From: Sphingosinicella sp. CPCC 101087
GTDB lineage: Bacteria > Pseudomonadota > Alphaproteobacteria > Sphingomonadales > Sphingomonadaceae
Reading direction: 5' to 3'
Assembly: GCF_004151485.1 (NCBI RefSeq)
Contig: NZ_SBFF01000019.1
Location: 1-32,459, forward strand
DNA: 32,459 nt
The notes beneath the pieces were generated by a model. It was given only the letters and a program-made list of their open reading frames with translations. It was not told the DNA's origin and ran no database searches. Below, piece after piece: positions 8,513 to 26,448 of this stretch (positions are counted from its first letter, which is position 1; every line of letters begins with the position of its first letter). The position numbers and the translations under genes are program-made.

Positions 8513-11500
8513 CTAGAACCTGACGGTCGCTCCGGCGAAGAAGCGGATGCCGAGGGGATCGTAGGTGCTTGGGAAGGTGTTCAGCTGCTCTTGCGAGCTG
8601 CCGATGAGCGTCTGCTTGTTGTCGGTGAGGTTGATGACGCCGCCGAACACGGTCAGCCGCTCCTCTATGTCCCAGGCGAGCGACAGGTCGAAATAATGCT
8701 CCGGATGGATCACCGGGACGGCCAGGTCGTCCGGCGAAAGGAGACCGCGGGTCACCCGGTCGTCCGTCACCTCGCCGACATAGCGGTAGCGCAGGCTCGC
8801 CGTGAACTCCTCGATCTCCAGGGTCGCACGGGCGGTGCCCTTCCATTCCGGCAGCGGCTCGCCGCAGGTCAGCCCGAATGCGCCGGCGCAGCGATTGACG
8901 AGATCCGGCACGTCGACGACGGGGTTGCGGTCGAACGTGTTCAGCCAGTTCAGGGAGCCTGCCAGGGTGAGGCTGCTCTCGGCGCCGAACAGCGAGCTCA
9001 CGTCCATCGAATAAGCGACGCCGACGTCGATGCCGTCGGTCTTGATCGATCCGATGTTGGCGAAGGGGGCGCTGATACCGCCCGGGCTGCCGATCGTGCC
9101 GTCGGGGAGGCGTTCGATCGACTGGCAGTAGAAGCTGTCGATGTCCTGGAACTGGTTGTAGCAGAGGTCGAGCACCACGTTGAGTGGTGCGCGAAAAATG
9201 GCGTCCTTGATGTCGATATTGTAATAGTCGACGGTGACGGCGAGACCCCGCGTCGGTCGGATTACGGCGCCCAGCGTGAAGGTATCGGTCGTCTCCTCCT
9301 CGAGGTCCGGATTGCCGCCGACGATGCCGGTCATCTGGAAGCTCGGCTGGATTCCGGTGTTGCCGACGGCGTCCGCCGGAACGCCGGTCGCGATGCAAAG
9401 GTCCCGGATCGGGCCGGGGTTCGCCGCCGAGGCGAGTGCGCACGGATCCGTCGCAGCCTCGGAGACCGTGCTCTCGGAGCGATAGAGCTCGTCGACGCTC
9501 GGGGCCCGCACCGCGCGCTGGTATTGGCCGCGAATCATGACTTGCGGAATGATCTGCCAGGTAGCGCCGCCGCCATAGGTCCACACGCCGTTCACATTCG
9601 GGAGAGAATAATCGGAGTAGCGGAAGGCGCCGTTCAGCTCGAAGCCGTCGAACACCGGCACGCGGACCTCGCCGAAGACTTCCTTGACGTTATACTCGCC
9701 TCCGGAAATCTCGCCGACGTCGCCGAAGCCGCCCTGTGACGGAACGAAAAGGGCATAGACGTCACGCCATTCGACACCGGCGGCGAAGCCCACCGGTCCC
9801 GCGGGCAGCTGCATGAGGTTGCCCGACACATAGGCGGTGGCGACCTGCATCTCCGCGTCTTCGCTGCTGCTCGAGCGCGTCGTGATGAAATCCAGCCCCT
9901 CCTGGGAGATATTGGGGCCGAAGATGTTCAGCGGCACGCAGCCATTGGCCTGGTTCTCGCACACCAGCTCCCCGCCGCCGGAAACGCCCGCGAACGGGAA
10001 CGGGCTGGTCTCCCCGGTCGCCGGATTGCGGAAGACCGTGGTCACGCCCTGCGTGAACGCCGCCGAGAGGATATTGCCTTCGGACTGGGTGTTGTTGCTG
10101 GTCTTCGCGAACGAATAATAAGCGTCATATTTGAGGTCGGTCAGGAAACTCTCGCTGACGGATCCGATATCCCCGCGAAGACCGGTCACGATGCGCCAGG
10201 CATCGCGCTCGAACGTCACGTCGCGAGTGCCGCCCTCGGAGATGCGCCGTCCAATGCTGAGGTTGGTGAATCCATCGCCTTGGGTGGCCGCGTCCGCTTC
10301 GGTCTCGTCGAGCGCGCGAAGCAGGTTCTGCACCCCTGCCGGAAGGAAGGGGCTGTTCACCTGAAAGCGATAGCTGCCGCTGATCGGCGTCGCCGCCCGC
10401 TTGGTCTGGACGACGTTGTTCGTGAAGACCCCTTCGACATAGAGTTCGGCGCCGGGCGAGATCTCGTAATTGGCCATTCCGCCGAAGATCCGCCGCTCCT
10501 GCGGAAGCTGCAGATAGTTTTCGGGGTTGAAGTTGTAGCGGTCGCCCGGCACGACGAAACGGCTGACCTGCGTTCCCGTCGCGTCGAACTTGAACCCATT
10601 GGCGTCGATCCCCGTGAGGCCCAACGCGCCGAGCGCGGCCTGCACCTGGGGACGGGCCGCCAGCGCAGCACCGAGCGGAAGGCCGGCGAAGCGTCCGTTC
10701 GGAATTCCGGCGCTGCCGCCGCAAGCGAGCGCGGGCTCGCCGTTGATGATCGTGTCTTCGAGGAAGCATTCCGACTGCTCCCGGGCGCCGGCCAGCGTGG
10801 GCTTCCGTTCGAAATAATTCACATAGAAGGTGGCGTTGCCGCGGCCCTCCGCGAAATTGCTCCCGACGATGAGATCGAGGTTCGCCTTTGCCGCGTCGCC
10901 CCGCGCGGTGATGTCATATTGGGCGGTGGCTTCGACGCCTTCGAAATCGTCCTTGAGGATGAAGTTGACCACGCCGCTGACGGCGTCTGATCCGTAGACC
11001 GCCGAAGATCCGCCGGTGATCAGTTCGACCCGGTCGACGAGGGCCGTCGGGATGGTGTTCAGGTCCGTCACCTGCCGCGCATCGAAGAAGATGTAGCGGC
11101 GCCCGTTCACCAGGATCAGGTTGCGCTGCTCGCCCAGGCCGCGCAGATTCACGGTCGCGACCCCGCTGCTCTCGTTGTTGGTGAAGCCGGACTCGCCCGG
11201 CACGACCTGCGGAAGGGTGTTGAGCAGATTCTCAGCCGTCGCCGAACTCGTGAGGCTGAATTCCTCGGACGAAATCTGGGATATCGGATTGGGCGCCGTC
11301 AGCGCCTGGGAGGCGATCCTCGATCCGGTGACGACGATCGCGTCTCCGGCCTGCGGCTCGCTGCCGTCCGCGCCGACAGGGTCGGTCCGGGCTTCATCAT
11401 CGAGCGAAGCCGGCGCCTGCTCTCCTTCGGGCGGCGCCACCTGAGCGTAGACCGGCGTCACCGTTACGACCAGCACCAACGTCGAGGCGACCCCCGCCAG

Positions 11501-11533
11501 CAGATGCGTGCGCAGCTTCTTCGCGTTCGTCAT
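8513..11533 (-). CDS. TonB-dependent outer-membrane receptor (region C)
   Basis: Outer-membrane active transporter of 1006 residues. The ATG at 11533 is chosen because GGGGA precedes it by about 6 nt and a signal peptide follows directly (KKLRTHLLAGVASTLVLVV, cleavage near VYA-QV). The frame extends upstream to 11692 but that part has no signal-like character. A TonB-box-like DAIVVTGSRI is followed by the plug domain (ENLLNTLPQV, NLRGLGEQRNLILVNGRRY, DRVELITGGSSAVYGSDAVS) and a 22-strand-type barrel ending GIRFFAGATVRF with a C-terminal Phe. Its size and plug motifs match the large sphingomonad/Caulobacter receptors that import peptides, sugars or other non-siderophore ligands. It lies divergent from the marR gene. 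A peptide-like ligand is inferred from the locus only. Confidence 0.95.
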   Translation of the reverse strand: MTNAKKLRTHLLAGVASTLVLVVTVTPVYAQVAPPEGEQAPASLDDEARTDPVGADGSEPQAGDAIVVTGSRIASQALTAPNPISQISSEEFSLTSSATAENLLNTLPQVVPGESGFTNNESSGVATVNLRGLGEQRNLILVNGRRYIFFDARQVTDLNTIPTALVDRVELITGGSSAVYGSDAVSGVVNFILKDDFEGVEATAQYDITARGDAAKANLDLIVGSNFAEGRGNATFYVNYFERKPTLAGAREQSECFLEDTIINGEPALACGGSAGIPNGRFAGLPLGAALAARPQVQAALGALGLTGIDANGFKFDATGTQVSRFVVPGDRYNFNPENYLQLPQERRIFGGMANYEISPGAELYVEGVFTNNVVQTKRAATPISGSYRFQVNSPFLPAGVQNLLRALDETEADAATQGDGFTNLSIGRRISEGGTRDVTFERDAWRIVTGLRGDIGSVSESFLTDLKYDAYYSFAKTSNNTQSEGNILSAAFTQGVTTVFRNPATGETSPFPFAGVSGGGELVCENQANGCVPLNIFGPNISQEGLDFITTRSSSSEDAEMQVATAYVSGNLMQLPAGPVGFAAGVEWRDVYALFVPSQGGFGDVGEISGGEYNVKEVFGEVRVPVFDGFELNGAFRYSDYSLPNVNGVWTYGGGATWQIIPQVMIRGQYQRAVRAPSVDELYRSESTVSEAATDPCALASAANPGPIRDLCIATGVPADAVGNTGIQPSFQMTGIVGGNPDLEEETTDTFTLGAVIRPTRGLAVTVDYYNIDIKDAIFRAPLNVVLDLCYNQFQDIDSFYCQSIERLPDGTIGSPGGISAPFANIGSIKTDGIDVGVAYSMDVSSLFGAESSLTLAGSLNWLNTFDRNPVVDVPDLVNRCAGAFGLTCGEPLPEWKGTARATLEIEEFTASLRYRYVGEVTDDRVTRGLLSPDDLAVPVIHPEHYFDLSLAWDIEERLTVFGGVINLTDNKQTLIGSSQEQLNTFPSTYDPLGIRFFAGATVRF

Positions 11534-11946
11534 GTCTATCCCCTTGAGGCGCGCGTACGCGCATGGCTTGTTTCCCTGCCCAATGTGCTGTTCTGGTTTT
11601 TCGATTGGCCCTGCATGGCGGTTCGGGCGCAGCGAACTGCAGTGGCCGAGGGATGGCGATCCGGCCGGCGCCCGCGCCCGCTCCTGCCCCATAATCCTGG
11701 AGCCGCCGGTCTCGCGTAACGAGGATCATGTGGACATGCCCTCCCAGCCGTCGGAGAGCGCCCGGCAAAGCGGCGCTCAAGATGGTTTAAGTATATACTA
11801 TATGAGATAGGGCGCAAGAAGATTCTTGAAGCTTGAAGTTTCTATGCGCTCTGGGCGACAGGCCGGCTTGCGCACCAGTTGCTAAGGGTGTCTTTCCCTT
11901 TAAGTGGCAAATTAACTGGCGAAGAGTTTCGCTCAGGGGAGTGAAG
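11534..11946. other. Divergent intergenic region TBDR / marR (413 bp)
   Basis: This region holds the TBDR promoter and leader, and the marR promoter. An AT-rich segment at 11780-11835 stands out from the GC-rich surroundings and contains the palindrome AGTATATACT (11790-11799). The 250 bp between that segment and the TBDR start would make a long 5' leader; I see no recognisable riboswitch in it. Confidence 0.5.
11790..11817 (-). promoter_or_regulatory. Candidate TBDR promoter with embedded AT-rich dyad
   Basis: On the minus strand TTGCGC (11817-11812) and TATACT (11795-11790) are 16 bp apart, a plausible sigma70 promoter for the TBDR. The -10 lies inside the perfect palindrome AGTATATACT (11790-11799). 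The core TTTAAGTATATA (11786-11797) matches 10 of 12 positions of the core of the 22-bp dyad at 19358, though the flanks match poorly. It may be a diverged operator of the same regulator. Confidence 0.4.
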
Positions 11947-12453
11947 ATGGACGAGTTACGATCGGAATCTTACGTGCTTGCCGAAAAACATTATGATGCC
12001 GTCTCCGAACCGGCGGCGGTGCGCTTGTGGCTGCGGCTGCTCACCTGCTCCCTCACGATCGAGAAGCGTCTGCGACGCCGTCTCGCGGACGAGTTCAGTA
12101 CCACTTTACCCCGATTCGACGTGCTCGCCGCACTGGACCGCCGTGCTGCCGGCATGACGATGGGCGAGCTCTCGAAGGCGCTTCTGGTGTCCGGCGGCAA
12201 TCTGACAGCGCTCGTCAGGCAGCTGGAACGCCAGGGCTATCTGCAGATGGAACGCGATCCACAAGATCGCCGCTCCTGGCTGGTGAGGATCACGCGTTCC
12301 GGACGGAAGCATTTCAAGGAGGTTGCGGCCGAGCATCATCATTGGGTCGCCGGCATGTTCGCCGGGATGTCGGCCGATCACAGCAACAAGCTCTACGAGC
12401 TGCTTGCGGAACTCAAGGATTCGCTGGCCGCCAATTCGCGGGAACATCCGTGA
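11947..12453 (+). CDS. MarR family transcriptional regulator
   Basis: Winged-helix DNA-binding protein of 168 residues, the usual MarR length. After an N-terminal dimerisation helix it reads TLPRFDVLAALDRR, then the recognition-helix region MTMGELSKALLVSGGNLTALVRQLERQGYL and the wing with the family motif DPQDRRSWLVRIT. A C-terminal helical dimerisation segment follows. The ATG at 11947 is preceded by AGGGGAGTGAAG. Its stop overlaps the GTG start of the CDGSH-bicupin gene (GTGA), so the two form an operon. It is the only dedicated regulator in region C and therefore the best candidate to bind the 22-bp dyads at 14742, 19358 and 22089. MarR proteins usually repress and are released by small ligands; that is family knowledge, not shown here. 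Confidence 0.93.
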   Translation: MDELRSESYVLAEKHYDAVSEPAAVRLWLRLLTCSLTIEKRLRRRLADEFSTTLPRFDVLAALDRRAAGMTMGELSKALLVSGGNLTALVRQLERQGYLQMERDPQDRRSWLVRITRSGRKHFKEVAAEHHHWVAGMFAGMSADHSNKLYELLAELKDSLAANSREHP

Positions 12454-13520
12454 CGGACGATGGCTCCCGAGCGGGCGTGACGGCCAGCCCGAGGCCCTAT
12501 TATTGCGAGCTCAGGCGCGGACGGCCGATCGCCTGGTGCCGCTGCGGCCGGTCGCAGCGACAGCCCTTCTGCGACGGACGCTCGCACCAGGGTACGGGTT
12601 TCGAGCCGCTCATTTACCGCCCGCAGGAGGCCTGGGAGGAAGTGCTGCTTTGCGGGTGCAAGCGCACGGGAACACCGCCCTTCTGCGACGGCACGCACAA
12701 CAACCTGCCCGGCGGCTACCGTGCCGACGCGCGAAGCGAGGACGTGCGGAACGGACTTCGGAGGGCGCAAGCGGACGATCGCGGGATCGCCAGGCTCGAT
12801 GGCCGCTGCTACGTCGTGAGTCCCGCACCGACGGCGGACAGTCGCGGAGCACCGTTCCGGATCCGCAAGCTCATCGGCCGCTCGCTCGGCGCCGAGCATC
12901 AGTCACTGTTCGAGCTCGAGGCTGGGTCAGGCACCACACCGTCCTTCGGCGCCGGATCGGCGGACGTGATCCTGTTCGTGGCGCGGGGCTCTGCGACCAT
13001 CGAGATTTCGGGACGCACGTTCGAGGTTCGCGAGCGGGACGGGCTGCACGTGCGTCCCGGCGAGTGGTTCCGGGCCGCGAGTCAGACCTGTTCCAGACTG
13101 TTCGTTTCGACCCTACCGGCGGCCGAGTCGCTCACGCCCGCCCTTTCCTCCGCGGCAGATTTCGACGACCGCTTTCCGGACCGGGTGAGAGGCGTCGACG
13201 AAGCGATCCGCTCCGAAATGGGGCCGCGCTATTTTCAGATGCTGGTGGACAGCGCCGTGGGCCTCCGAGGCGCCGCTCAGTTCATCGGCCACATCCCTCC
13301 CTCGCGCGCCGAGATGCATCGCCACCTCTACGAGGAGGCGCTGATGGTGCTCTCCGGCCGAGGCATCCTCTGGAACGAGGAGAGCCGCGCCGACGTGAGA
13401 GCCGGCGATGTGATCTTTCTGCCTCGCAAGCACGCCCATTCGCTGGAATGCACCGATACCGACGGAATGGACGTCGCGGGAATCATCTATCCCGGAGATA
13501 ATCCGAGCCTAAATTATTAG
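12450..13520 (+). CDS. CDGSH iron-sulfur / bicupin fusion protein
   Basis: A 356-residue fusion. Two CDGSH-type Fe-S motifs come first: WCRCGRSQRQPFCDGRSH (Cys30, 32, 41, His46) and LCGCKRTGTPPFCDGTH (Cys68, 70, 79, His83). The second has the canonical Cys-to-His spacing of 4. The first has an extra Arg (CDGRSH), giving a spacing of 5. Two cupin domains follow. The first (about 150-225) lacks metal-binding His. The second has the full set, HRHLYEEALMVLSG (His290, His292, Glu296) and PRKHAHS (His330), so one metal site is expected. The GTG at 12450 overlaps the marR stop and has GGGAA upstream. A metal-dependent oxygenase or a redox sensor are both possible; neither is shown. The gene ends in a shared hairpin. 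Confidence 0.85.
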   Translation: MTDDGSRAGVTASPRPYYCELRRGRPIAWCRCGRSQRQPFCDGRSHQGTGFEPLIYRPQEAWEEVLLCGCKRTGTPPFCDGTHNNLPGGYRADARSEDVRNGLRRAQADDRGIARLDGRCYVVSPAPTADSRGAPFRIRKLIGRSLGAEHQSLFELEAGSGTTPSFGAGSADVILFVARGSATIEISGRTFEVRERDGLHVRPGEWFRAASQTCSRLFVSTLPAAESLTPALSSAADFDDRFPDRVRGVDEAIRSEMGPRYFQMLVDSAVGLRGAAQFIGHIPPSRAEMHRHLYEEALMVLSGRGILWNEESRADVRAGDVIFLPRKHAHSLECTDTDGMDVAGIIYPGDNPSLNY

Positions 13521-13536
13521 GGCCTTCGGGCTCTAA
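13517..13536. terminator. Bidirectional UUCG-type hairpin spanning two stop codons
   Basis: TTAGGGCC, loop TTCG, GGCTCTAA: an 8-bp stem (one G-T pair) on a stable UUCG tetraloop. It includes the TAG stop of the CDGSH-bicupin gene (13518-13520) and the TAG stop of the convergent PLP-enzyme gene (13535-13533). Confidence 0.65.
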
Positions 13537-14726
13537 GCGAGCAGTTCCCGGTTCGCCCGCAGGGCCTCGATCAGCCGATCCACGTCGCTCCTGTCGTTGT
13601 ACAGGTGAAAGCCGGCCCTGACGTTGCCATCGCGGTACGAGGTGACCACGTTCCGCTCGATCAGCCTGGTGACGAGCGCCACGGCATCACGCGCCTCGAG
13701 AGTCAGCATCGGACCGCGTGAGCTGTCCTCCACCGGCGTCGCGACGGGAAAGCCTTCCGCAATGAAGCGATCGAGCGCGTAGCGCGTGAGGGCGCTTATC
13801 CGTGCCGCAATGGCCTCGATGCCATATTCCAGGATGATGCCAAGGCCGGCATCGGCCGCGTAGCAGCTCGGAACCGGCGGCGTGCCGGCTTCGAAGCGGC
13901 TGGCGGTATGGCTCGGATCGTTCGCGAAGATGTTCATGGCGCCGATGTCGTCCTGCGCGAACCAACCGGACGCGGTTGGGACGAGATCGGGGATCAACTC
14001 GCGGCGGACGTACAGAAAGCCGATTCCCGCCGTCCCCAACAGATACTTGAACATCCCGCCGACCGCGAAGTCCACGCCGAGCTCCTTCACGTCGATCACC
14101 TCGGCTCCGGCGGACTGGAAGCAGTCAAGGATCACATACGCCCCATGGTCATGCGCCACTTCGACGATGGACCGGATGCTCCCGTTCGAAAATTTGCCCC
14201 CATGCCGATAGCAGACGTGGGAAAGGACGACGATTCGCGTGCGCTCGTCGATCCTATCGGCAAAATGCTCAGGTGGGATCAGTCCCGACTCGTCTTCCGC
14301 CACGTGCTCGACGACGGCTCCGCGACGCGCCTGCGCATGCCAGATCTGACCGCTGGTCGGGAATTCGTAATTGCTTACGAGAATCCTGTCGCGCCCACCG
14401 GAAAAATCGAGCGCCGACGCAAGCGCGTTGATTCCCGCTGAGGCCGAGGCCGTTACCGCGATTTCGTCTCTTTGGGCCCCAAGCAACCGGGCAACCTTGT
14501 CGCGCACCCTCCCCGCCCGATCCACCCAGAGGTCCCAATCAGCCCCGACCTTCACCCGATGATCCATATACTCTTCAAGCGAAGCTCGGACCGTGTCGCC
14601 CAACAGGCCGTAGGAGCCGCTATTGATGTAAGCGAGCCGTTCGAGCGTGGGAAATCGACGGCGTGCGTCCTGCAGCCCGTCAATTTGAATCGAACTTTGC
14701 TCGCAGGCGGATTCGAGGCTGGACAT
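13533..14726 (-). CDS. Class V aminotransferase-fold PLP enzyme
   Basis: Cytosolic PLP-dependent enzyme of 397 residues (fold-type I, aminotransferase class V). The N-terminus YINSGSYGLLG is typical of the class. The cofactor-anchoring block is YVILDCFQSAGAEVIDV (Asp201, Gln204), and the Schiff-base lysine is K227 in VGGMFKYLLGTAGIGFLYV. This class includes kynureninase, isopenicillin N epimerase-like proteins, cysteine/selenocysteine lyases and ergothionase-type C-S lyases. The sequence alone does not tell me which reaction. The ATG is at 14726, only 15 bp from the 22-bp dyad at 14742-14763, so it is probably co-regulated with the divergent amidohydrolases. No signal peptide, so it would act on a product after uptake. 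Confidence 0.88.
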   Translation of the reverse strand: MSSLESACEQSSIQIDGLQDARRRFPTLERLAYINSGSYGLLGDTVRASLEEYMDHRVKVGADWDLWVDRAGRVRDKVARLLGAQRDEIAVTASASAGINALASALDFSGGRDRILVSNYEFPTSGQIWHAQARRGAVVEHVAEDESGLIPPEHFADRIDERTRIVVLSHVCYRHGGKFSNGSIRSIVEVAHDHGAYVILDCFQSAGAEVIDVKELGVDFAVGGMFKYLLGTAGIGFLYVRRELIPDLVPTASGWFAQDDIGAMNIFANDPSHTASRFEAGTPPVPSCYAADAGLGIILEYGIEAIAARISALTRYALDRFIAEGFPVATPVEDSSRGPMLTLEARDAVALVTRLIERNVVTSYRDGNVRAGFHLYNDRSDVDRLIEALRANRELLA

Positions 14727-14741
14727 CCTGCATTTAATAGA

Positions 14742-14763
14742 ATTACTTTAGGCTTATAGCAAT
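14742..14763. promoter_or_regulatory. 22-bp operator-like dyad, copy 1 (divergent PLP enzyme / amidohydrolase)
   Basis: Arms ATTACTTTA and TATAGCAAT separated by 4 bp. Read on the minus strand it differs at a single base from the copy at 22089-22110 and at four from the one at 19358-19379. It sits in the 70-76 bp gap between the divergent starts at 14726 and 14803, so one bound regulator could control both units. Size and symmetry fit a MarR dimer site. Confidence 0.75.
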
Positions 14764-14802
14764 AGGGCTGCAGACCGCGACAGCCTCAACGGGGGAATGA
14801 AG

Positions 14803-16191
14803 ATGCGCCTGTCCAAGTTTCTGGCCTTCTCCGTCTGCGCCGCCCTCGCTTTGGCGGCGCCCGGCGTGGCGCAGCGAAACGTCGAACCCGGACAGCCGGC
14901 CCATCCCACTGCGCGAACGGCCCTGCCGACCATAATCCACGCGGGACACCTCATGACGGAACCTGGTGCGCAGGTCATGGTCAACGCCACGCTCGTGGCG
15001 ATGGATGGAAAGGTCCACTCCGTCCATGAGGGTTTCAGGAACGCGGCCGAGCTCGGATTGCCGCCCGATACGCGACTGGTCGACCTGTCGTCCAAATATG
15101 TCCTGCCCGGCTTCATGGATCTTCATGTTCACATAACGAGCGGTGGGATCGCGGCTCGCGGGTCCAGCCTGCGAATGCAGCAGGAAGACGCCTTCTTCGC
15201 CTTGAACGGCTATACCAATGCGCTGGCAACGCTGATGGCGGGCTTCACCACCATCCGCGATCTCGGCGCGCCCAATGCCGCCATCTTCTCGCTGCGCGAC
15301 GCGATCAAATACGGCGTGGTGCCCGGCCCCAACATCATCGCCGCCGGCGAGGGGATCAGCCCCACGAACGGACATGGCGACTCCCACGGGCTGAGGCGCG
15401 CCTTTCTCGACGCGGAGTCGCATGACAATGTCTGCGACGGTGCCGACGACTGCCGCCGCGCGACGCGCGCGGCCATCAAATATGGCGCCGATGTGATCAA
15501 GGTGCACGTGACCGGCGGAGTTCTGGATCCTTCGGATGCGGGCACCGAGCAGCAGTTCACGGACGAGGAGCTCAGGGCGATCGTCGAGGCGGGCCATTCG
15601 ATGGGACGCCGGGTCACCACGCATGCGCACGGCAAAGGCGGAATCGATGCCGCGGTCAGAGCGGGCTACGATTCTATCGAGCACGCCATGTGGGCGGACG
15701 AGGAAAGCCTCAGGCTGATGAGGCAGCATGGAACCTATCTCATTCCCACGGTGTGGCCGATCACATGGGTGGGCGACACTCCCGAGAAGGTGCTGCGTGG
15801 GCCGATGAGGGACATCAATCCGGTGTCTCTGGGCAAACTTCTGAGGCTGGGAGACCAGCCCAAGCGGCTCGTGCGTATGGCGATCCGGATCGGGACGCCG
15901 ATCGCTCTGGGCACCGACAGCGGCATTTCGCCGCACGGTACGAATGCGCAGGAAATGGTGGAATATGTCGAGGCGGGCATGACCCCGGTCGAGGCGCTGA
16001 GGACCGCTACCGTGAACGCCGCGGACGCGGCCGGCCTGCAGGATCGCGGCAAACTGGCGCCGGGCATGGCGGCGGACATCATCGCCCTGGACGGAGATCC
16101 TACCGCCGACATCAATGCCGTTTCGAGCGTCAGCTTCGTCATGCGCGACGGCATCGTCTTCAAGCGCGACGGCGCGGAAGTGAAGGAGTGA
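14803..16191 (+). CDS. Exported metal-dependent amidohydrolase, imidazolonepropionase/prolidase-like (1)
   Basis: Periplasmic amidohydrolase, 462 residues. A signal peptide (RLSKFLAFSVCAALALAAPGVAQ) is followed by a TIM-barrel hydrolase with a complete binuclear metal site: DLHVH (His108, His110), the bridging lysine K233 in VIKVHVTGG, His274 in VTTHAHG, His294 in SIEHAMWAD and Asp372 in ALGTDSG. This set is that of the Xaa-Pro/Xaa-Arg/Lys dipeptidases (Sgx9260/Cc2672 group) often annotated as imidazolonepropionase-like. It likely hydrolyses a dipeptide or N-acyl amino acid. ATG 14803 is preferred, with GGGGGA 6 nt upstream; ATG 14797 is possible. It heads an operon with a second amidohydrolase 5 nt downstream and carries the 22-bp dyad upstream. 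Confidence 0.92.
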   Translation: MRLSKFLAFSVCAALALAAPGVAQRNVEPGQPAHPTARTALPTIIHAGHLMTEPGAQVMVNATLVAMDGKVHSVHEGFRNAAELGLPPDTRLVDLSSKYVLPGFMDLHVHITSGGIAARGSSLRMQQEDAFFALNGYTNALATLMAGFTTIRDLGAPNAAIFSLRDAIKYGVVPGPNIIAAGEGISPTNGHGDSHGLRRAFLDAESHDNVCDGADDCRRATRAAIKYGADVIKVHVTGGVLDPSDAGTEQQFTDEELRAIVEAGHSMGRRVTTHAHGKGGIDAAVRAGYDSIEHAMWADEESLRLMRQHGTYLIPTVWPITWVGDTPEKVLRGPMRDINPVSLGKLLRLGDQPKRLVRMAIRIGTPIALGTDSGISPHGTNAQEMVEYVEAGMTPVEALRTATVNAADAAGLQDRGKLAPGMAADIIALDGDPTADINAVSSVSFVMRDGIVFKRDGAEVKE

Positions 16192-16196
16192 CACTG

Positions 16197-17630
16197 ATGA
16201 TCAGATTTCCCTCGCAAGCGCTCGCCACCTGCATGACCGCCGTCGCACTTGCCCTGGCCGCCCCGGCTCTCGCCGAGGATTTCGTGATCGAGAATGTGAC
16301 CCTGGTGGACGGCACGGGGCAGCCGAAGCAGGCCGACATGTCGATCGGCGTCGAAGATGGACGCATCACGTTCGTCACGCCGACGTCAGCGGCGCCCCGG
16401 GTCCCCGGGCGGCGTCTCGACGGCACGAACCATTATCTGATCCCGGGCCTGATCGACGCGCACATCCATCTCAAGGGCGCGCGCGGCGGCGACGGCCGGC
16501 GCATGGTCGGTGTCGAAAGGAACAACCCACAAGCATCACCGCCGCCGGAGCAGGCCACGGCCGATGCCGCGACCGCCCATGCTGCCGGCCTGCAGGCATT
16601 GGCCAGCTTTCTCTACTCGGGCGTGACCAGCGTCTTCGACGCCGGCAACGTTCCGGAGCACATTCTCGGCCTGCGTGCGGAAGAACGCGCCGGCCGGATC
16701 CTCTCGCCACGAATCTTCGCTACCGGCAACCTCGTCACTTATCCGGGCAGCCACGGCGGCTCGATGGCGATCGAGATCGACGATTGGAGCGAAGACAGGC
16801 CCGCGCTCCTCAGATATCTGGAGGAGCAGAAGCCGGATGTCGTTAAGCTGACGCTCGACGAGCATGGCTGGGGCACGCGCCCGCTCATCACCTTGTTGCC
16901 GCTCGATCTCATGCAGGAGATCATCCTCGAGGTGAACCGGCATGGCATCCGCACCACCGCCCACACCTCCAGCGAGCTGCGCGCGACGGAAGCGATCTTC
17001 GCGGGGATCGACAGCCTCGCCCATCCCGTCATCCAGGGCCCGATCACCGAGGAATTCGCGAAACTGATGGCGGCCAAGAGAACGCCGATGGCGACCACGT
17101 TGACGATCGGCGAAGGCTACAGCCGTCTTGTCGAGCATCCCGAATATCTCGACCAGCCGCTCTACCAGGCCTCCTACAGCCCTGCGGAGATCGAGGAGCT
17201 GCGGACCACGACGCTTCCAGCCTGGCGGGAGCGCGGCTGGACCTGGTGGATGAAGGTGATGACGCCCGTCGCGCAGGAGAATATGCGCATGATCGATGCG
17301 GCCGGTGGAATCATCGCGATCGCCACCGACCAGACGCTCGGGCCGGCTGTCCACCGCGAGATGGAGCTGCTCCAGGCCGCCGGCGTTCCTGCCGACCGTA
17401 TCATCACCATCGCGACCCTCAACGGCGCCAGGCATCTGGGCAAGCAAGATGAGCTCGGGTCGATCGAGCCTGGAAAGCTCGCCGACATGGTGCTCCTCAG
17501 TGCCGATCCCACTGTCGACATCGACAATGCCAAGCAGATCGTCTGGGTGATGAAGGCCGGGCAGCTGGTCGACGAAGACCGGCTCCCGCTCGCCGGGGGG
17601 CGGAGGCCGCTTCGGCGCGACCAGCGTTAG
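16197..17630 (+). CDS. Exported metal-dependent amidohydrolase, imidazolonepropionase-like (2)
   Basis: Second exported amidohydrolase of the pair, 477 residues. Signal peptide at 1-27 (cleavage near ALA-ED). The metal set is DAHIH (His89, His91), K217 in VVKLTLDEHGWG, His256 in TTAHTSS, His276 in SLAHPVI and Asp378 in IATDQTLG. It ends with the family's C-terminal beta-sandwich block, SIEPGKLADMVLLSADP. The ATG at 16197 is 5 nt after the stop of amidohydrolase 1, with GGAG upstream, so they are co-transcribed. The two share a fold but little detailed sequence, so they probably cleave different bonds or successive intermediates. The insert around 95-130 (GGDGRRM to PPPEQ) differs from copy 1. 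Substrate not known. Confidence 0.9.
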   Translation: MIRFPSQALATCMTAVALALAAPALAEDFVIENVTLVDGTGQPKQADMSIGVEDGRITFVTPTSAAPRVPGRRLDGTNHYLIPGLIDAHIHLKGARGGDGRRMVGVERNNPQASPPPEQATADAATAHAAGLQALASFLYSGVTSVFDAGNVPEHILGLRAEERAGRILSPRIFATGNLVTYPGSHGGSMAIEIDDWSEDRPALLRYLEEQKPDVVKLTLDEHGWGTRPLITLLPLDLMQEIILEVNRHGIRTTAHTSSELRATEAIFAGIDSLAHPVIQGPITEEFAKLMAAKRTPMATTLTIGEGYSRLVEHPEYLDQPLYQASYSPAEIEELRTTTLPAWRERGWTWWMKVMTPVAQENMRMIDAAGGIIAIATDQTLGPAVHREMELLQAAGVPADRIITIATLNGARHLGKQDELGSIEPGKLADMVLLSADPTVDIDNAKQIVWVMKAGQLVDEDRLPLAGGRRPLRRDQR

Positions 17631-17782
17631 GCTTCAAGTCCCGCCCGGCAGGTGATCGGGCTCGGCCGGATTGGGGCTGGGCCGGTGAATGAGGCGCGGC
17701 GTCCCACGCGGCAGGACCCGGCGTCAGCTCCTGGCGGAGCGCAGGCCGGCGCGTAGCGCGGCCGAGCTGATCATGAACCATT

Positions 17783-17813
17783 CTCTTCGACGTCCGGAAA
17801 CGCCGTCGAAGAG
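17783..17813. terminator. Strong hairpin between convergent amidohydrolase and permease genes
   Basis: CTCTTCGACG and CGTCGAAGAG form a perfect 10-bp stem with an 11-nt loop. It lies in the 266-bp gap between two convergent stops (17630 and 17897), with no gene in that gap. There is no clear U-tract, so it may be a factor-dependent or protective hairpin. Confidence 0.5.
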
Positions 17814-17896
17814 GCCGTTTGGCCGCGGGCCGCCGTTCCCAATCGGGGTTTGGCTCCCGGACGCTGGGGCTCCCTCCTGCCGCTGGCCGGGCTGCT

Positions 17897-19294
17897 TCAG
17901 GACGGGTTTGCGGCTGTGCGCGCCGATCGCGCGAGACTTCGTCGCTTCCAGACAAAGTAGGCGAGGGAGATCAGGACCAGCCACGGCACGCCGACGATCC
18001 AGGCCACGCTCCAGAAATCGGTGAAAGCCATGGTGAGAAGAATCGCGCCAAGGAGCACGAGCCCCGCTATCTGGACATAAGGGAAGAACGGCATTCGCAC
18101 CGGCAATTGCGAGACGTCGTGCCGACGACGGAAGCTCAGATGGCTGACCAGGATCGTCATCCACACGACGATGGCGCCGAAGATCGCGATGCCGAACAGA
18201 TAATTGTAGGCGAGCGGAGTCAGCATCGAGACGCTCGCCGCGACCAGGATGCAGGCGCCCGAAGTCAGGATCGCTCCGACCGGCGTTCCATTGCCGCTGA
18301 GCCTGCCGAGATATTTCGGCGCATAGGAGCCGCGCGAGAGCGAGAACAGCATTCGAGAGCAGAGATAGATATTCGTGTTCATGCTGGACAATGCGGCGCT
18401 GATCACGACGAAATTCATGATGGCGGCGGCATGGGGAATGCCTGTGTAGGCGAGCACCTTCACGAAGGGGCTCTGCTCGACGACTTCCGCGCCGGATTCC
18501 GTCCAGGGGACGAAGCTCACCACGATGGTTAGCGCAAGCACGTAGAAGAGGATGAGGCGCAAGGCCATCGTGCGGAGCGCCGCGGGAATGGCCTTTTCGG
18601 GCTGCCGCGTCTCGCCGGACGTGACGGCGATCACTTCGATGCCGACGAAGGAAAAGATACCGATCAGCACGCCCATCCAGACGCCCGTCCATCCATTGGG
18701 CATGAAGCCTCCCGGAAGGCCGGTGAGGTTTTGAAAGCCGATCGGCTCGGTACCGATGCCGAAGATCGTGCCGAGACCGAGAATGATGAATAACACGATC
18801 GCCGTCACCTTGATGAAGGCGAACCAGTATTCGAATGTGCCGAAGTCGCCCACCGAGCGCGAGTTGACGTAGAGGAGGATGAAGGCAAAGCCGAGCGACC
18901 AGACCCAGATCGGCAGGTCCGGAACCCAGTAGGTCATGTACACGCCCGCGGCGACCGCTTCGCCGCCGATCGCTATCACCTGCGCGATCCAGTAGGTATA
19001 GCGGACGACGAAACCCGCCCAGGGATTGAGGTAGGTTTCCGCATAGGTGCCGAATGAGCCGGCCGTGGGATGGACGACGGCCATTTCCGAAAGGCTGAAT
19101 ACCATGACGACGGCTGCGAAGCTGGCGATGAGGTAGCTGAGCACGACCGCCGGCCCGGCATAGTTGATGGCGATGCCGCTTCCCATGAAGAGGCCGGTGC
19201 CGATTGCACCGCCCAGCCCGATCATCACGACCTGAGCCTTGCTGAGCCCCTTGTGGAGGCCGCTTTCCCGCTCGACGATCTCGTTCTCGGTCAC
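17897..19294 (-). CDS. APC-family amino-acid permease (AAT type)
   Basis: Inner-membrane amino-acid transporter, 465 residues and about 12 helices. It starts TENEIVERESGLHKGLSKAQ and enters the signature Gly-rich helix VVMIGLGGAIGTGLFMGSG, typical of the AAT/GABA-permease branch of the APC superfamily. Later blocks also fit the family (SFVGIEVIAVTSGETRQPEKA and SMNTNIYLCSRMLFSLSRG). The GTG at 19294 was chosen because GGAGGGG lies 4 nt upstream; the frame extends to 19348, but that part (MPMMIVHGPGRES) is unlike the family. The 22-bp dyad (19358-19379) lies 64 bp upstream. It probably takes up the amino acid released by the exported hydrolases of this locus; the substrate cannot be named from sequence. 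Confidence 0.93.
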   Translation of the reverse strand: MTENEIVERESGLHKGLSKAQVVMIGLGGAIGTGLFMGSGIAINYAGPAVVLSYLIASFAAVVMVFSLSEMAVVHPTAGSFGTYAETYLNPWAGFVVRYTYWIAQVIAIGGEAVAAGVYMTYWVPDLPIWVWSLGFAFILLYVNSRSVGDFGTFEYWFAFIKVTAIVLFIILGLGTIFGIGTEPIGFQNLTGLPGGFMPNGWTGVWMGVLIGIFSFVGIEVIAVTSGETRQPEKAIPAALRTMALRLILFYVLALTIVVSFVPWTESGAEVVEQSPFVKVLAYTGIPHAAAIMNFVVISAALSSMNTNIYLCSRMLFSLSRGSYAPKYLGRLSGNGTPVGAILTSGACILVAASVSMLTPLAYNYLFGIAIFGAIVVWMTILVSHLSFRRRHDVSQLPVRMPFFPYVQIAGLVLLGAILLTMAFTDFWSVAWIVGVPWLVLISLAYFVWKRRSLARSARTAANPS

Positions 19295-19357
19295 TGCCCC
19301 TCCACCCGCGCTTTCCCGTCCGGGCCCATGGACTATCATCATCGGCACTCATGGCCA

Positions 19358-19379
19358 ATTGCTTTAAGTCTAAAGCGAT
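19358..19379 (-). promoter_or_regulatory. 22-bp operator-like dyad, copy 2 (permease promoter)
   Basis: On the plus strand, arms ATTGCTTTA and TAAAGCGAT around 4 bp: the most symmetric of the three copies, with one mismatch between the 9-bp arms. It matches the other copies at 18 (14742) and 17 (22089) of 22 positions. It lies upstream of the permease in the gap after the M14 gene, which suggests the permease has its own promoter. Confidence 0.75.
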
Positions 19380-19482
19380 TCCTGAATCCGCCGGAGCTGA
19401 TTGTCGTCGCCGCGGCTCGCCGCAGGGAGATGAGACCGGCCCGCCCCCTCGCTGCAGGCCCGCGCGCCATGTCGCGAATTCA

Positions 19483-22053
19483 TCAGCGCACCAGAGGCCC
19501 GAACAAGATGGCATTGAACAGCAATTGATGCAGATGCGTCCATTGGTTGCGCAGGTTGGGATCCTCGCCGAACATGATCACGCGGCCCCTTCCGACCGTT
19601 TCGGTCATCAGGAAATCGGTCGATGCGAGACTGGCCTCGTCCTCGCCCTGCAGGTAGCCCGCAATCTTCAGCCCATCGGCGGGCGCGTAGGAGAGCACCG
19701 AGCGCCCGCTTTCGCCCGCCGAGAACAAGCGCGTATTTCGCGAGAGCACGTGGAACGAATCCGGATAGCCGATCGTCAGCGGCGATCGATCCTCGACCTC
19801 CACCCGCACGATGGCGCCGGGGGTCTGGCGCGTCACGCCAAGCGATTCGGTGCTCGTCAGGCCACCGCCCTCCGATGAGGCAAAGGCGGTGCCGCCCTTG
19901 ACCGTGATGAGGGTGCCGCCCTGCTCCACCCAGTCCTTCAGATGCTCGGTCCCTTCCTCGCGGAAGTACCATTCGTAGGGCCTGCCTCGGATTCCCCCGC
20001 GACCGATGCTCTGGCCGCCATCCGGAATGATGATCGTGTTGTACCGGCGCAGGTCGGCCTGGGCGAGGTCTTCGATGGTGATCGGCGTGAAGGGCAGCCG
20101 GTACATCTCGTCGAAGAAGAAGTAGAAGCTGCCCCATGCCGAGGTGTCGGTGCCGTCGCGCGTGAGCACCGCGACCGCTGGCCTGCCGACCGGCTGCAAC
20201 ACGCCCGAGCCGAGATCCGAGCCCTCATTGGCATGGCCGGTGGAAACGGCCTGTATTTGCACGGGGACATCCTCGACCACGGCGCGCACGAGATCGTGGA
20301 TCGTCTCGTCATTCTCCTCGACCGGCGCGACGAACGCCGCGCCGTAGGAGGTGCCGGCGAGCGTGAACGGGCCCGGATGCAGGTACAGGTTCGCGCCTTC
20401 CTCGGCGAGGCGGTAGGCCGCGGCGGCATCGAGCGCTCCGCCGTACGGCCACACATAGGCGTAGCTCGCTTTGCCGCCGCTCAGTTCGCCCCAGAGCGGC
20501 AGCGGTTCGTTGACCGGCTCCACCGCGACCCGGGGCACGCTGTCCATCCAATAGCCGTCGATCCCGTATTGGTAGGGCAGGGCCCATACCGAAATGTCGT
20601 AGAAGACCGGGATCGAGTGAAACGGCTCCTTCTCGAGCAAGGCGTTGGCCAGTCGGCTCAGCGGCTGCCTCAGGGACACTATATAGCTGCCTGCCGGAAA
20701 GTCCTGTCGCTCGGCTGTGCTCGAGAAATATCCGTGGGCTCGGCGCACCGAAAAGGGCTCGGTGGCCCTTTGCACTTCTATGCCGTGGGCGAGAAGGCTG
20801 TCGATGAACTGCGACATCTTATTCGGATCGGCGTCCGGCGGAAACGCATAGGCCATGCGCTCGACGCCGGGCACGCCGTCCATCGAGGACCTGAAGAATT
20901 CATGGAAGTCGCGATGCAGTTCGCGGCGGTTCGCGACCGTGGTGTCGAGATAGGACATCATCCCGGTGACGTGATGCTGCACCCGGTCGCGAAGAGTCAG
21001 CAGCGAGCCGTTCTGCCGCTCGATGACCAGGCCTCCGCTACCGGCGCCCTGCTCGAAGAGGATACCGATCATACCGTGATACTGGGTGTACAAGGTGTGC
21101 ATGCCCAGGAAGGGCGAGCCGAACGAGTCGCCGGAAAAATACCGCCAGCCGCGCGCGTCGAACTGCTCGCGCATGTCCTGCGCGTAGATCTCCCACCACT
21201 TCCGCAGCGTGTCGTTGGGCAGGTTCGTGTTGTAGGGTTCCGGATAAGGCGGAAAGAAGAAGGTCGAGTCGACTCCCATCTCGTGAATGTCGAGCGCGAG
21301 CTCGGGCCGCCAGTTCCGGATCAATTCGACCTTGGCACGGCCTTCGCGCATTTTCAGCGGCACCATGTCTCGGTTCGGATCGAGCTGATAATGGTTGGAA
21401 TCATTGCCGACGCCCCAGGGCTCGTTGTGCTCCGCGGCATTCGGGTCGGCCTTGGGAATTCGGCTCTGCACCGTGCGGTACCAGGAGACATAGCGCTCCC
21501 GAGGTGACGGATTTTCGACCGGGATGATGTAGGTCAAGGCCTCGTCGAGGATACGCAAGGTGCGCGGATCCGTGCCGGCGAGAAGCTGGTAAGCTATGAT
21601 CTGCATGGCCTCGACCGAGGAAGCTTCGCTCGTGTCGATCGTCGAGATCATGACGGCAGCCGGCGTATTCTCGACTATGGTTTCGAGCTCGCCGTCGCGG
21701 AGCTTGCGCGGGTCCGCCAGCTTGCCGAGATTCTCGACGTGCGTCTCGAGGGCGGCCAGATTCGCCGGGCTGCTGACCACCAGCATGTAGAGCTTCTTGC
21801 CCTCATAATCTTCGCCATAGGTCACCAGCCTGGCCCGATCCGAAGCTTCGGCCCAGCGATGAAGCAGTCTTTCGGTCTCGTAGAAGCTCGTGAACTGCGC
21901 TGGCGGCTCGAAGCCGAGCACTTCCCCGATGGTCGGGATTTCGGGGTCGTAGGTGCTTCCCGGCACCCATTCCGCCGAGGCTGCCGCCGGACCCGACATG
22001 AGCTGGATCGCAACGAGGCAGGCCGCTCTTACCATAAGCCTGGAAAGACGCAT
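19483..22053 (-). CDS. Exported M14-type zinc carboxypeptidase-like protein with C-terminal GATase-like domain
   Basis: Large exported M14-family protein, 856 residues. Signal peptide 1-27 (MVRAACLVAIQLMSGPAAASA). M14 domain at about 50-400: the block matching HxxE reads IDTSEASSVEA, so the usual first zinc His is Asp140 while Glu143 is kept. Other family marks are present: NHYQLDPNRD, the third ligand region LDIHEMG (His257) and ILFEQGAGSGG with the catalytic Glu334. The C-terminal part (about 640-850) resembles the class I glutamine-amidotransferase-like domain found in this M14 subgroup (RRYNTIIIPDGG, WVEQGGTLITVKGG). ATG 22053 has GGGGAAG upstream. The 22-bp dyad lies 36 bp upstream. It likely trims peptides in the periplasm, if the altered site still binds zinc. 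Confidence 0.9.
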   Translation of the reverse strand: MRLSRLMVRAACLVAIQLMSGPAAASAEWVPGSTYDPEIPTIGEVLGFEPPAQFTSFYETERLLHRWAEASDRARLVTYGEDYEGKKLYMLVVSSPANLAALETHVENLGKLADPRKLRDGELETIVENTPAAVMISTIDTSEASSVEAMQIIAYQLLAGTDPRTLRILDEALTYIIPVENPSPRERYVSWYRTVQSRIPKADPNAAEHNEPWGVGNDSNHYQLDPNRDMVPLKMREGRAKVELIRNWRPELALDIHEMGVDSTFFFPPYPEPYNTNLPNDTLRKWWEIYAQDMREQFDARGWRYFSGDSFGSPFLGMHTLYTQYHGMIGILFEQGAGSGGLVIERQNGSLLTLRDRVQHHVTGMMSYLDTTVANRRELHRDFHEFFRSSMDGVPGVERMAYAFPPDADPNKMSQFIDSLLAHGIEVQRATEPFSVRRAHGYFSSTAERQDFPAGSYIVSLRQPLSRLANALLEKEPFHSIPVFYDISVWALPYQYGIDGYWMDSVPRVAVEPVNEPLPLWGELSGGKASYAYVWPYGGALDAAAAYRLAEEGANLYLHPGPFTLAGTSYGAAFVAPVEENDETIHDLVRAVVEDVPVQIQAVSTGHANEGSDLGSGVLQPVGRPAVAVLTRDGTDTSAWGSFYFFFDEMYRLPFTPITIEDLAQADLRRYNTIIIPDGGQSIGRGGIRGRPYEWYFREEGTEHLKDWVEQGGTLITVKGGTAFASSEGGGLTSTESLGVTRQTPGAIVRVEVEDRSPLTIGYPDSFHVLSRNTRLFSAGESGRSVLSYAPADGLKIAGYLQGEDEASLASTDFLMTETVGRGRVIMFGEDPNLRNQWTHLHQLLFNAILFGPLVR

Positions 22054-22088
22054 GAAGCTTCCCCGCCTTGCGCACGCCTCTGGTGCGA

Positions 22089-22110
22089 ATTGCTACAAGC
22101 CTAAAGTAAT
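22089..22110 (-). promoter_or_regulatory. 22-bp operator-like dyad, copy 3 (M14 peptidase promoter)
   Basis: On the plus strand, arms ATTGCTACA and TAAAGTAAT around 4 bp, 21 of 22 identical to the copy at 14742-14763 read on its minus strand. Its GCAAT end faces the M14 start 35 bp away, the same orientation and nearly the same distance as copy 1 relative to amidohydrolase 1 (39 bp). Confidence 0.75.
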
Positions 22111-22254
22111 CGTATCCGAGGCGGGATGTCCAGCTTCACGGAAGCGTCGCGGTTGCGGTCCGGCGCAGGACGCGCTGGCCGGCAGCGACATTCGAACGCC
22201 GCTACCTCGAAATGCGACTTTGTTCCCTGACCCGTCCGAGCTGCTTGCTTCACC

Positions 22255-22273
22255 TGGGAGGGCTGACCTCCCA
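22255..22273. terminator. Possible hairpin between GGDEF and M14 genes
   Basis: TGGGAGG and CCTCCCA form a perfect 7-bp stem around GCTGA, in the 273-bp gap downstream of the membrane GGDEF gene (minus strand). The gap holds no other gene that I can support. No U-tract, so confidence is low. Confidence 0.3.
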
Positions 22274-22383
22274 AAGCATAGGCGACCCAGGCACTAGGAC
22301 GAGGGACACCAAGGAGAGGCTATTCGTCCAGCGAGAAAGCTTCCTATGCGAGCGATCCCGGACCTCACGGATCCGCTCCGTCG

Positions 22384-24833: not shown

Positions 24834-25625
24834 TACTGTCCGTTCACCATAGGAATTTTTCCCGCATCCGTGACCGCCTCTGCATTCTGGTTGGTTCGCT
24901 CAGTGCAGCCACCCAGCACTGAAAAGGACGAAGATCGTCCATGCCGATCCGGTCGGACGTGGCCGTCGGCCGACCGGAGGTTTCGGGCGAATTCAGGTGC
25001 TCCCGCGGCAGTGGCGCGACATCATCAGCGCACATGGTTGGGCCGTCACGAGGACCAGGAAAGCGACACCGCTCATATCGTGCTTCCCTCCTGCCGGTCA
25101 CGTGGTCAGCATGAATCGGCATTTCGGCCTGAGGAGACGCATGATGAACCCGGCACCGTCTTCCAGCGCATGCTGCTCGCGACGGCGGTGCCGCTGACGC
25201 TCGCAGCCTGCGAGGCGCGCGCGGATAGAGAAGCAGAGTACCCACCCTCTGCTTGAATCCCTAGAACCGCTGATGCCCAAGCCTGGCGGTAACCAACCCT
25301 CTCTTTTGCTGGAACGCATTGGCCGCTACGCTGCAAAGTTGCGCTGGTCGCCTCGACCGGCCGTGAACGGGTTCCCGGATGCGCGCACGATAAGGCTGGG
25401 TGCTCGGATATCGTTCTGATCGTCTCGGCGTCGAGCGTCGCCTGGCCAGTGTTGCCGACGCCCCGGGGCCGGGACCGCTCCGGAACCGGCGCCCGAAGGG
25501 CATCGGGCTGCTGGAATTTCCACCCCGCGCCGGCAATTGTCTATGCGGGGCCAATGCGAATACAGACACTCCGCACCAGCTCCGGCCCCGAAGGTCACGT
25601 CGATGAAAATGTCAGGTCACCAGCA
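24834..25625. other. 790-bp stretch without a supported gene; possible lipoprotein remnant
   Basis: No convincing gene. Near its middle a short frame reads RMLLATAVPLTLAACEARAD and stops at 25256; this looks like the lipobox start (LAAC) of a lipoprotein but ends eight residues later. The upstream ATGATG at 25141, after GAGGAGACGC, is in a different frame, so this could be a decayed gene. The stretch must also hold the iclR promoter. Confidence 0.35.
25512..25522. promoter_or_regulatory. Possible IclR site upstream of iclR-type gene
   Basis: TGGAATTTCCA is a perfect 11-bp dyad about 104 bp upstream of the IclR start. It uses the same GGAA/TTCC half-sites as the tandem boxes at 26408 and 27628 but with a 1-bp spacer. 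It could mediate autoregulation; a chance match is possible. Confidence 0.3.
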
Positions 25626-26443: not shown

Positions 26444-26448
26444 TTTCG

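What the first reader, a model, noticed from the sequence alone, without database searches (positions are those of the whole stretch)
14742..22110. A near-identical 22-bp dyad in three promoters defines an unrecorded regulon
Copies at 14742-14763, 19358-19379 and 22089-22110 agree at 17-21 of 22 positions, with 9-bp arms of the form ATTGCTNNA-N4-TAAAGYRAT. Each lies in a short intergenic gap 35-64 bp before the start of an exported amidohydrolase, a permease or an exported peptidase, always with the GCAAT end facing the gene. Copy 1 also serves the divergent PLP enzyme. Identical operators at several units 5-7 kb apart, plus a MarR gene in the same locus, suggest one controlled pathway.
Basis: partly seen in the sequence, partly recalled or inferred. 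Interest (0 to 1): 0.75.

Follow-up and report, generated by a model that had tools for sequence, protein, structure and literature searches.

The report
MarR operator sites in catabolic cluster
Three near-identical DNA palindromes, plus a weaker fourth, look like the landing sites of a local MarR-type switch protein that in related bacteria mostly sits with genes for breaking down benzoate-like aromatic rings; it is a convincing but conventional gene-control circuit, and DNA binding has not been shown.

Summary
In detail: three copies of a 22-bp dyad, confined to this locus in the genome at up to 2 mismatches. The MarR reading is well supported. Relatives of the window MarR (11947-12453) occur in 51 of 347 sampled genomes of the family; 48 of 55 such loci hold a salicylyl-CoA 5-hydroxylase-type gene (anthraniloyl-CoA monooxygenase kin). 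A degenerate form of the dyad lies 11-84 bp before that gene in 39 of 47 loci tested. All four recur at the matching places in Pelagerythrobacter aerophilus. M14-peptidase orthologues carry a site in 4 of 4 genomes, amidohydrolase orthologues clearly in 3 of 10 (this genome counted). Whole-genome control: 34 sites in 40 genomes with this MarR type, 3 in 40 without. Most likely it is a MarR repressor, released by an aromatic acid or its CoA ester, controlling exported amide/peptide hydrolases, a permease and a kynureninase-like enzyme. Binding, ligand and sign of control are inferred. New member of a known kind.

The parts
14742..14763 (-). Dyad site 1 (ATTGCTATAAGCCTAAAGTAAT), between the PLP enzyme and the amidohydrolase pair; counterpart in G332
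   Evidence: score 27.1 with a matrix trained without window or G332 sites
19358..19379 (+). Dyad site 2 (ATTGCTTTAAGTCTAAAGCGAT), before the amino-acid permease; counterpart at the same place in G332
   Evidence: 27.2
22089..22110 (+). Dyad site 3 (ATTGCTACAAGCCTAAAGTAAT), before the M14 peptidase; a site lies upstream of 4 of 4 orthologues, this one counted
   Evidence: (23.8)
11781..11802 (+).
   Evidence: 17.9; G332 26.2; maximum in 20 shuffles of the window 10.2
11821..11842 (+). Possible weak partner dyad 40 bp from the fourth site; counterpart 41 bp away in G332; score below the shuffle maximum
   Evidence: 9.0; G332 9.5
11947..12453 (+). MarR-family regulator (168 aa), proposed to bind the dyads
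12450..13520 (+). CDGSH iron-binding plus cupin protein, its frame overlapping the end of the MarR gene
13533..14726 (-). Class-V PLP enzyme, kynureninase-like but below the kynureninase cut-off
14803..16191 (+). Amidohydrolase 1, signal-peptide-like N-terminus by eye; solved relatives include Cc2672 and ochratoxinase
   Evidence: start
16197..17630 (+). Amidohydrolase 2, signal-peptide-like N-terminus by eye
17897..19294 (-). APC-type amino-acid permease
   Evidence: scanned from the longer frame 17897-19348; start inferred from the ribosome-binding-site-like stretch shared with G332
19483..22053 (-). M14 zinc carboxypeptidase-like protein, signal-peptide-like N-terminus by eye
8513..11533 (-). 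TonB-dependent receptor, divergent from MarR; its promoter region would share the fourth site (84% identical orthologue in G332)
   Evidence: receptor type read from the sequence, not scanned

Best explanation
The dyads are operators of the MarR-family protein encoded at 11947-12453. A MarR dimer binds the 22-bp palindrome (family form WTTRYTTTARNNYTAAARYAAW), which lies over or next to the promoter, and keeps four units off: the MarR/TonB-receptor pair, the PLP enzyme/amidohydrolase pair, the permease and the M14 peptidase. An aromatic acid of the anthranilate or salicylate type, or its CoA thioester, is the likely signal that releases it. The units then supply exported amide and peptide hydrolases, a receptor, a permease and a kynureninase-like enzyme that feed the salicylyl/anthraniloyl-CoA ring-hydroxylation route, whose genes lie elsewhere in this genome under a diverged form of the same operator and a paralogous MarR. 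Shown by comparison: the sites, their conservation and their linkage to this MarR subfamily. Inferred: binding, repression, ligand and substrate.
For: Chance expectation and confinement to the locus. A near-identical dyad in a congener lies 12 bp before a hydroxylase gene whose operon holds a 49%-identical MarR. In 59 fetched stretches, 55 of them with a subfamily MarR gene, 45 matches at 0-3 mismatches to the degenerate motif against 0 in Markov shuffles. Whole genomes at up to 2 mismatches: 40 with this MarR type gave 34 sites in 23 genomes (reversed-pattern control 6 sites); 40 without gave 3 sites in 2 genomes (reversed control 5). 24 of the 34 lie within 20 kb of a MarR gene of the type; leaving out the 3 window sites and 9 others that I had seen before drawing the pattern, 13 of 22, where about 1% is expected by my arithmetic. 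The hydroxylase gene has a site within 220 bp upstream in 39 of 47 loci, 12 of the 39 sites having been in the training set. A matrix trained without window or G332 sites ranks the four window sites and five G332 sites above all else in both loci. Genomes with the amidohydrolase orthologue: 10 of 10 have the MarR, against 51 of 347 overall. In G107 the amidohydrolase and the peptidase, and in G184 the peptidase, lie on other contigs than the MarR gene but carry the site. The stretch LLVSNGNVT, taken to be part of the recognition helix, is unchanged in 40 of 55 subfamily proteins.
Against: No binding or expression data. The paralogous MarR on contig C1 could bind the same sites. Six of 10 amidohydrolase orthologues lack the site, including five that are 58-69% identical. 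The window and its closest relative have LLVSGGNLT instead of LLVSNGNVT, and window sites keep C/G at positions 5/18 where half of the family half-sites have T/A, so specificity may have drifted. The profile search of the genome recovered only one of the three window sites. The promoter scan found no sigma-70-like promoter in 11500-22400, so overlap with a -10 box is by eye only. 17 of 40 MarR-bearing genomes had no site at up to 2 mismatches. The ligand is guessed from gene context.
Confidence: 0.82

Rival explanations
1. The dyads are operators, but of another regulator: the paralogous MarR on contig C1, the IclR-type protein at 25449-26414, or a protein elsewhere.
For: The genome has a 48%-identical MarR paralogue whose operon has a related dyad; an IclR gene lies 3.3 kb from site 3.
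Against: No dyad lies in the IclR half of the window. The P. aerophilus genome has one subfamily MarR at the cut-off used and still shows all the sites. In two loci with a MarR gene but no hydroxylase gene in the stretch, L065 and L073, a site lies beside the MarR gene.
Confidence: 0.12
2. MarR binds the dyads but acts as an activator or with mixed sign, so loss of the protein lowers expression.
For: MarR activators and dual regulators exist (PMC9613470, passage seen); promoter geometry here is unclear.
Against: Sites lie 11-84 bp before hydroxylase genes, and many follow a TTG-type hexamer that starts about 16 bp upstream (by eye), which fits blocking of RNA polymerase; most characterised MarR proteins repress (same passage).
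Confidence: 0.15
3. The dyads are recurrent promoter or hairpin elements without a dedicated regulator, or chance palindromes.
For: They are A+T-rich stretches in G+C-rich promoters; sites 1 and 3 also share CTGGACATCC at the same spacing upstream (read by eye).
Against: Shuffles give none or far weaker ones; 40 genomes without the MarR type have 3 sites against 34 in 40 with it.
Confidence: 0.02

Closest known systems
CouR (MarR repressor of p-hydroxycinnamate catabolism, Rhodococcus jostii; PMC4737184, start of abstract seen in search listings)
   Same: MarR protein; operator for CoA-dependent aromatic catabolism genes; a CoA-thioester ligand is the model favoured here
   Different: CouR controls p-hydroxycinnamate genes and its ligand was measured; here ligand and binding are unknown and the controlled genes include exported hydrolases
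IadR/MarR_73 and IacR (MarR regulators of auxin catabolism; PMC9613470, passages seen)
   Same: MarR repressor beside an aromatic catabolic locus with a DNA site upstream of the first gene; ligand releases it
   Different: The ring genes linked here are a salicylyl-CoA 5-hydroxylase-type operon; auxin binding was not tested here
2-Aminobenzoyl-CoA monooxygenase/reductase pathway (Azoarcus evansii, Arthrobacter Rue61a; PMC3534580, passages seen)
   Same: The gene most often linked to this MarR subfamily is of what I take to be the same enzyme type (NF006101 above cut-off in two tested), with hydratase, dehydrogenases and often a CoA ligase; proteins above the kynureninase cut-off near two loci
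   Different: 'marr' does not occur in the main text of that paper; whether the substrate here is anthranilate or salicylate is not settled; one site lies before a cupin related to gentisate dioxygenase but below that cut-off

Membership tests
MarR family | MarR winged-helix domain above curated cut-off | tested here: met
   MarR_2 49.5 bits against cut-off 27; MarR 40.5 against 24.6
MarR family | Palindromic sites near own gene and targets (predicted, from sequence) | tested here: met
   Fourth site between MarR and TonB receptor; three target sites; counterparts in G332
MarR family | Dimer binds operator and is released by ligand | not testable with these tools
   Needs protein
BilQ, HpaR, FabT, MprA and other named MarR equivalogs | Score above NCBIfam cut-off | tested here: not met
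   Best is BilQ 48.7 bits against 125; HpaR 34.5 against 121.2; none of the 15 listed families reached its cut-off
IadR/IacR auxin regulators | Binds indole-3-acetic acid and regulates iad/iac genes | not tested
   Only passages of PMC9613470 seen
CouR-type CoA-thioester-sensing MarR | Aromatic acyl-CoA as ligand | not testable with these tools
   Inferred from gene context only
Kynureninase (PLP enzyme, 13533-14726) | TIGR01814 above cut-off | tested here: not met
   89.1 bits against 246.4, though the closest solved structure is kynureninase 1qz9

The most novel reading that the evidence does not exclude
This MarR subfamily governs a complete, so far unnamed route in this bacterial family in which exported amidohydrolases of the ochratoxinase type and an M14 carboxypeptidase split aroyl-amino-acid conjugates (anthraniloyl, salicyloyl or kynurenine-containing) outside the cytoplasm. 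The released aromatic acid is activated to a CoA ester, hydroxylated, and drained through glutaryl-CoA, all from one operator class.
Probability: 0.25. Interest if true: 0.6.

Novelty: new member of a known kind. Interest (0 to 1): 0.42.

Why it matters
It gives a testable regulator-operator pair for the CoA-dependent breakdown of anthranilate- or salicylate-like acids across many genomes of one bacterial family. It also ties exported amide hydrolases of unknown natural role, relatives of an ochratoxin-cleaving enzyme, to that pathway, which narrows the search for their real substrates.

Tried and rejected
Considered and rejected: regulation by the IclR protein (no dyad in its half of the window); chance or a general promoter element. 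A congener hit with one mismatch, ATTGCTCAAGCGGTAAAGCAAC in G025, showed no hydroxylase or MarR-subfamily gene that I recognised in the listed frames and was treated as chance. A profile hit at G000:C9:28993 lies inside a hydrolase reading frame by my reading and was dropped as chance. Of the 34 sites in MarR-bearing genomes, two (G017:C1, G139:C4) lie inside reading frames and remain unexplained. Sites in genomes without the MarR type (G048 twice, G211, and G225) sit in contexts that look unrelated by eye.

Results that did not help or went against: the profile search of five genomes was weak (best E 0.026), found nothing in G163, only one of the three window sites and only the hydroxylase site in G332, where the matrix finds more. 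The sigma-70 scan found no promoter. The genome-contig scan gave 2 loci, one close relative (P. aerophilus, 90%) and one distant. Eight of 47 hydroxylase loci had no site within 220 bp: in L075-L077 it lies before the first gene of the operon instead, in L050 about 205 bp upstream, and in L052, L086, L095 and L100 matrix hits lie elsewhere in the stretch. L047 was left out of that count because its hydroxylase gene is cut. Four of 55 MarR loci have no site by matrix (L047, L069, L084 on short contigs, L078 with a distant MarR); that matrix was partly trained on the same loci. The fragment at the end of C2 matched no NCBIfam family at 1e-10, and two fuller relatives did not reach the glutaryl-CoA dehydrogenase cut-off (224 and 203 bits against 470) although solved glutaryl-CoA dehydrogenases match one of them strongly. 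The shuffles keep only neighbour-base frequencies, so one search is the better control. Its limits: I gave it 39 of the 51 MarR-bearing genomes plus G010, which had been found through the motif, and 40 of the 296 others, picked by hand; the degenerate pattern was drawn partly from sites in these genomes. The 10-of-10 co-occurrence treats genomes as independent. A planned structure prediction was not made.

Full report
OBSERVATION. The pattern ATTGCTNNA-N4-TAAAGYRAT is present without mismatch at the three stated places; shuffled windows almost never contain it. In the whole genome (4.70 Mb, 44 contigs; the window is all of contig C11) it occurs at up to 2 mismatches only at these three places. 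The sites are palindromes lying 35-63 bp before the likely starts of the amidohydrolase, the permease and the M14 protein, and 15 bp before the divergent PLP enzyme (sequence, frames).

GENES. Pfam and NCBIfam give: a MarR protein; a CDGSH/cupin protein overlapping it; a class-V PLP enzyme (kynureninase C-terminal domain above its Pfam cut-off; kynureninase equivalog not reached; closest solved structure kynureninase 1qz9); two amidohydrolases; an amino-acid permease; an M14 peptidase, for which no solved relative was found by sequence. Amidohydrolase 1 matches solved amidohydrolases including arginine carboxypeptidase Cc2672 and ochratoxinase 4c5y. The N-termini of the amidohydrolases and the M14 protein look like signal peptides by eye. 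None of the listed named MarR families reaches its NCBIfam cut-off.

THE DYAD TRACKS A MarR SUBFAMILY. A congener (G010) has ATTGCTTTAGCCCTAAAGTAAA 12 bp before a 763-residue flavoprotein gene, in an operon with a MarR 49% identical to the window's. A protein search found this MarR type in 51 of 347 sampled genomes of the family, this genome included. I fetched stretches around these genes. 48 of 55 MarR loci hold a gene for the same flavoprotein, which NCBIfam calls bifunctional salicylyl-CoA 5-hydroxylase/oxidoreductase (two tested: 1288 and 1283 bits, cut-off 1078), commonly with a short-chain dehydrogenase, enoyl-CoA hydratase, acyl-CoA dehydrogenase, thioesterase and RidA. I take the enzyme type to correspond to the 2-aminobenzoyl-CoA monooxygenase/reductase discussed in PMC3534580 (passages); that correspondence is recalled, not tested. 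Near two loci lies a protein above the kynureninase cut-off (272 and 271 bits, cut-off 246), and one site lies before a cupin related to gentisate dioxygenase (312 bits against a cut-off of 442, not met).

COUNTS. With the degenerate form WTTRYTTTARNNYTAAARYAAW, 59 stretches gave 45 matches at 0-3 mismatches, shuffles none; some of these sites had shaped the pattern. In 47 hydroxylase loci a matrix site lies within 220 bp of the gene in 39 (each 0 of 200 shuffles), 12 of these sites having been in the training set. As a whole-genome control I took 40 genomes with and 40 without the MarR type, at up to 2 mismatches: 34 sites in 23 genomes against 3 sites in 2; the reversed pattern gave 6 and 5 sites. 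Of the 34, 24 lie within 20 kb of a MarR gene of the type (places and, for G010). Without the three window sites and nine others that I had already seen when drawing the pattern, it is 13 of 22, where I estimate about 1% by chance. Of the 10 unlinked sites, eight lie before or beside genes that suit the pathway: two before glutaryl-CoA-dehydrogenase-like genes (one also before a hydroxylase gene), one before a benzoate-CoA-ligase-family gene, two before TonB receptors, two before a partial hydroxylase gene with dehydrogenase and hydratase genes behind it, and one before the amidohydrolase orthologue; the other two lie inside reading frames. The stretch LLVSNGNVT, taken to be part of the recognition helix, is unchanged in 40 of 55 MarR proteins; the window and G332 have LLVSGGNLT.

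THE WINDOW'S OWN SITES IN RELATIVES. A matrix trained on 22 sites from other genomes, none from the window or G332, ranks in the window 19358 (27.2), 14742 (27.1), 22089 (23.8) and then 11781 (17.9), between MarR and the TonB receptor; the next is 9.0 and the maximum in 20 shuffles was 10.2. There the matrix finds sites at the four matching places (site 1 28.2, site 2 27.0, site 3 23.7, MarR/TonB 26.2) and a fifth (31.5) before a hydroxylase operon 7 kb beyond the TonB gene, in which no MarR gene was found. That genome has a single MarR of the subfamily at the cut-off used, so one protein probably serves both clusters. Although sequences drifted at sites 2, 3 and 4, palindromes stayed in place.

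ORTHOLOGUES. Ten of 347 genomes have a close orthologue of amidohydrolase 1, and all ten have the MarR type (2e-9 if genomes were independent, which they are not). Three carry a strong upstream site (this genome, G332, G107), one a borderline site (G163, 14.2), six none. The M14 orthologue occurs in four genomes and all four have a site upstream (23.8, 23.7, 21.6, 19.5). In G107 the amidohydrolase and the peptidase, and in G184 the peptidase, lie on other contigs than the MarR gene, so physical linkage does not explain the shared site; the amidohydrolase of G184 has none. In G163 the permease homologue and the PLP/cupin pair also have sites (17.3 and 19.1).

IN THIS GENOME. Further sites lie before the hydroxylase operon on C1 with its paralogous MarR (GATATTTTAGCCTTAAAATAAA) and near the start of contig C2, before the beginning of an acyl-CoA-dehydrogenase gene. 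The fragment is 70% identical to a protein of G184 whose strong solved relatives are mostly glutaryl-CoA dehydrogenases, but NCBIfam cut-offs were not met. A glutaryl-CoA exit would suit CoA-dependent ring degradation; this step is inference from general knowledge.

MECHANISM. Best-supported: a MarR dimer represses by covering promoter DNA and is released by an aromatic acid or its CoA ester, as in CouR (PMC4737184, start of abstract) and IadR (passages of PMC9613470). Upstream of many hydroxylase sites a TTG-type hexamer starts about 16 bp before the dyad (by eye), which would place the -10 region inside the dyad; the simple promoter scan of the window found no consensus promoter. The pathway idea, that exported hydrolases release an aromatic acid or kynurenine-type amino acid that feeds the hydroxylase route, fits the gene set but nothing here tests it.

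NOVELTY. MarR operators before aromatic catabolic genes are a known kind. I found no description of this MarR subfamily or its operator in searches of an open-access paper library only (listings; passages of two papers); no supplementary files and no operator databases were searched. I rate it a new member of a known kind, well supported by comparison and untested at the bench.

Noticed in passing
L115 (G000:C2) 397-416: A strong dyad lies near the start of contig C2, before the start of an acyl-CoA-dehydrogenase gene (glutaryl-CoA-dehydrogenase-like by likeness to a relative) that is cut by the contig end; a masked stretch lies between.
   Followed up: partly
L079 (G359:C125) 10251-10504: A dyad about 80 bp before a MarR-like 5' fragment (52 residues, 62% identical) that does not continue, next to a frame that looks like an IstB transposition helper: a broken copy of the regulator.
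   Followed up: no
L121 (G359:C63) 1981-2060: Two dyads before a partial hydroxylase gene (only its last third matched), followed by dehydrogenase and hydratase genes.
   Followed up: partly
window 25449-32457: Separate cluster: IclR regulator, Amidohydro_2 protein, TonB receptor, TauD-type dioxygenase and, at the contig edge, what looks like a thiamine-diphosphate enzyme; none of the dyads.
   Followed up: no
window 6528-8384: TPR protein with a C-terminal part that looks like an oxygenase, next to the TonB receptor; the pair is also adjacent in P. aerophilus (77% identical).
   Followed up: no
L046, L093, L097, L098, L067, L068, L070-L072, upstream of the hydroxylase gene: A second half-site or dyad (ATATTTCAA...) lies directly upstream of the main site, suggesting tandem MarR binding in some genomes.
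   Followed up: no
L096 (G163): Permease, two PLP-enzyme and one CDGSH/cupin homologue of the window lie around a MarR/hydroxylase operon, with matrix sites before the permease, in the PLP/cupin gap and before the hydroxylase.
   Followed up: partly
window 14719-14763 and 22089-22133: Sites 1 and 3 share CTGGACATCC 13 bp before the dyad, so the likeness extends beyond the palindrome; in site 1 it overlaps the PLP start codon.
   Followed up: no
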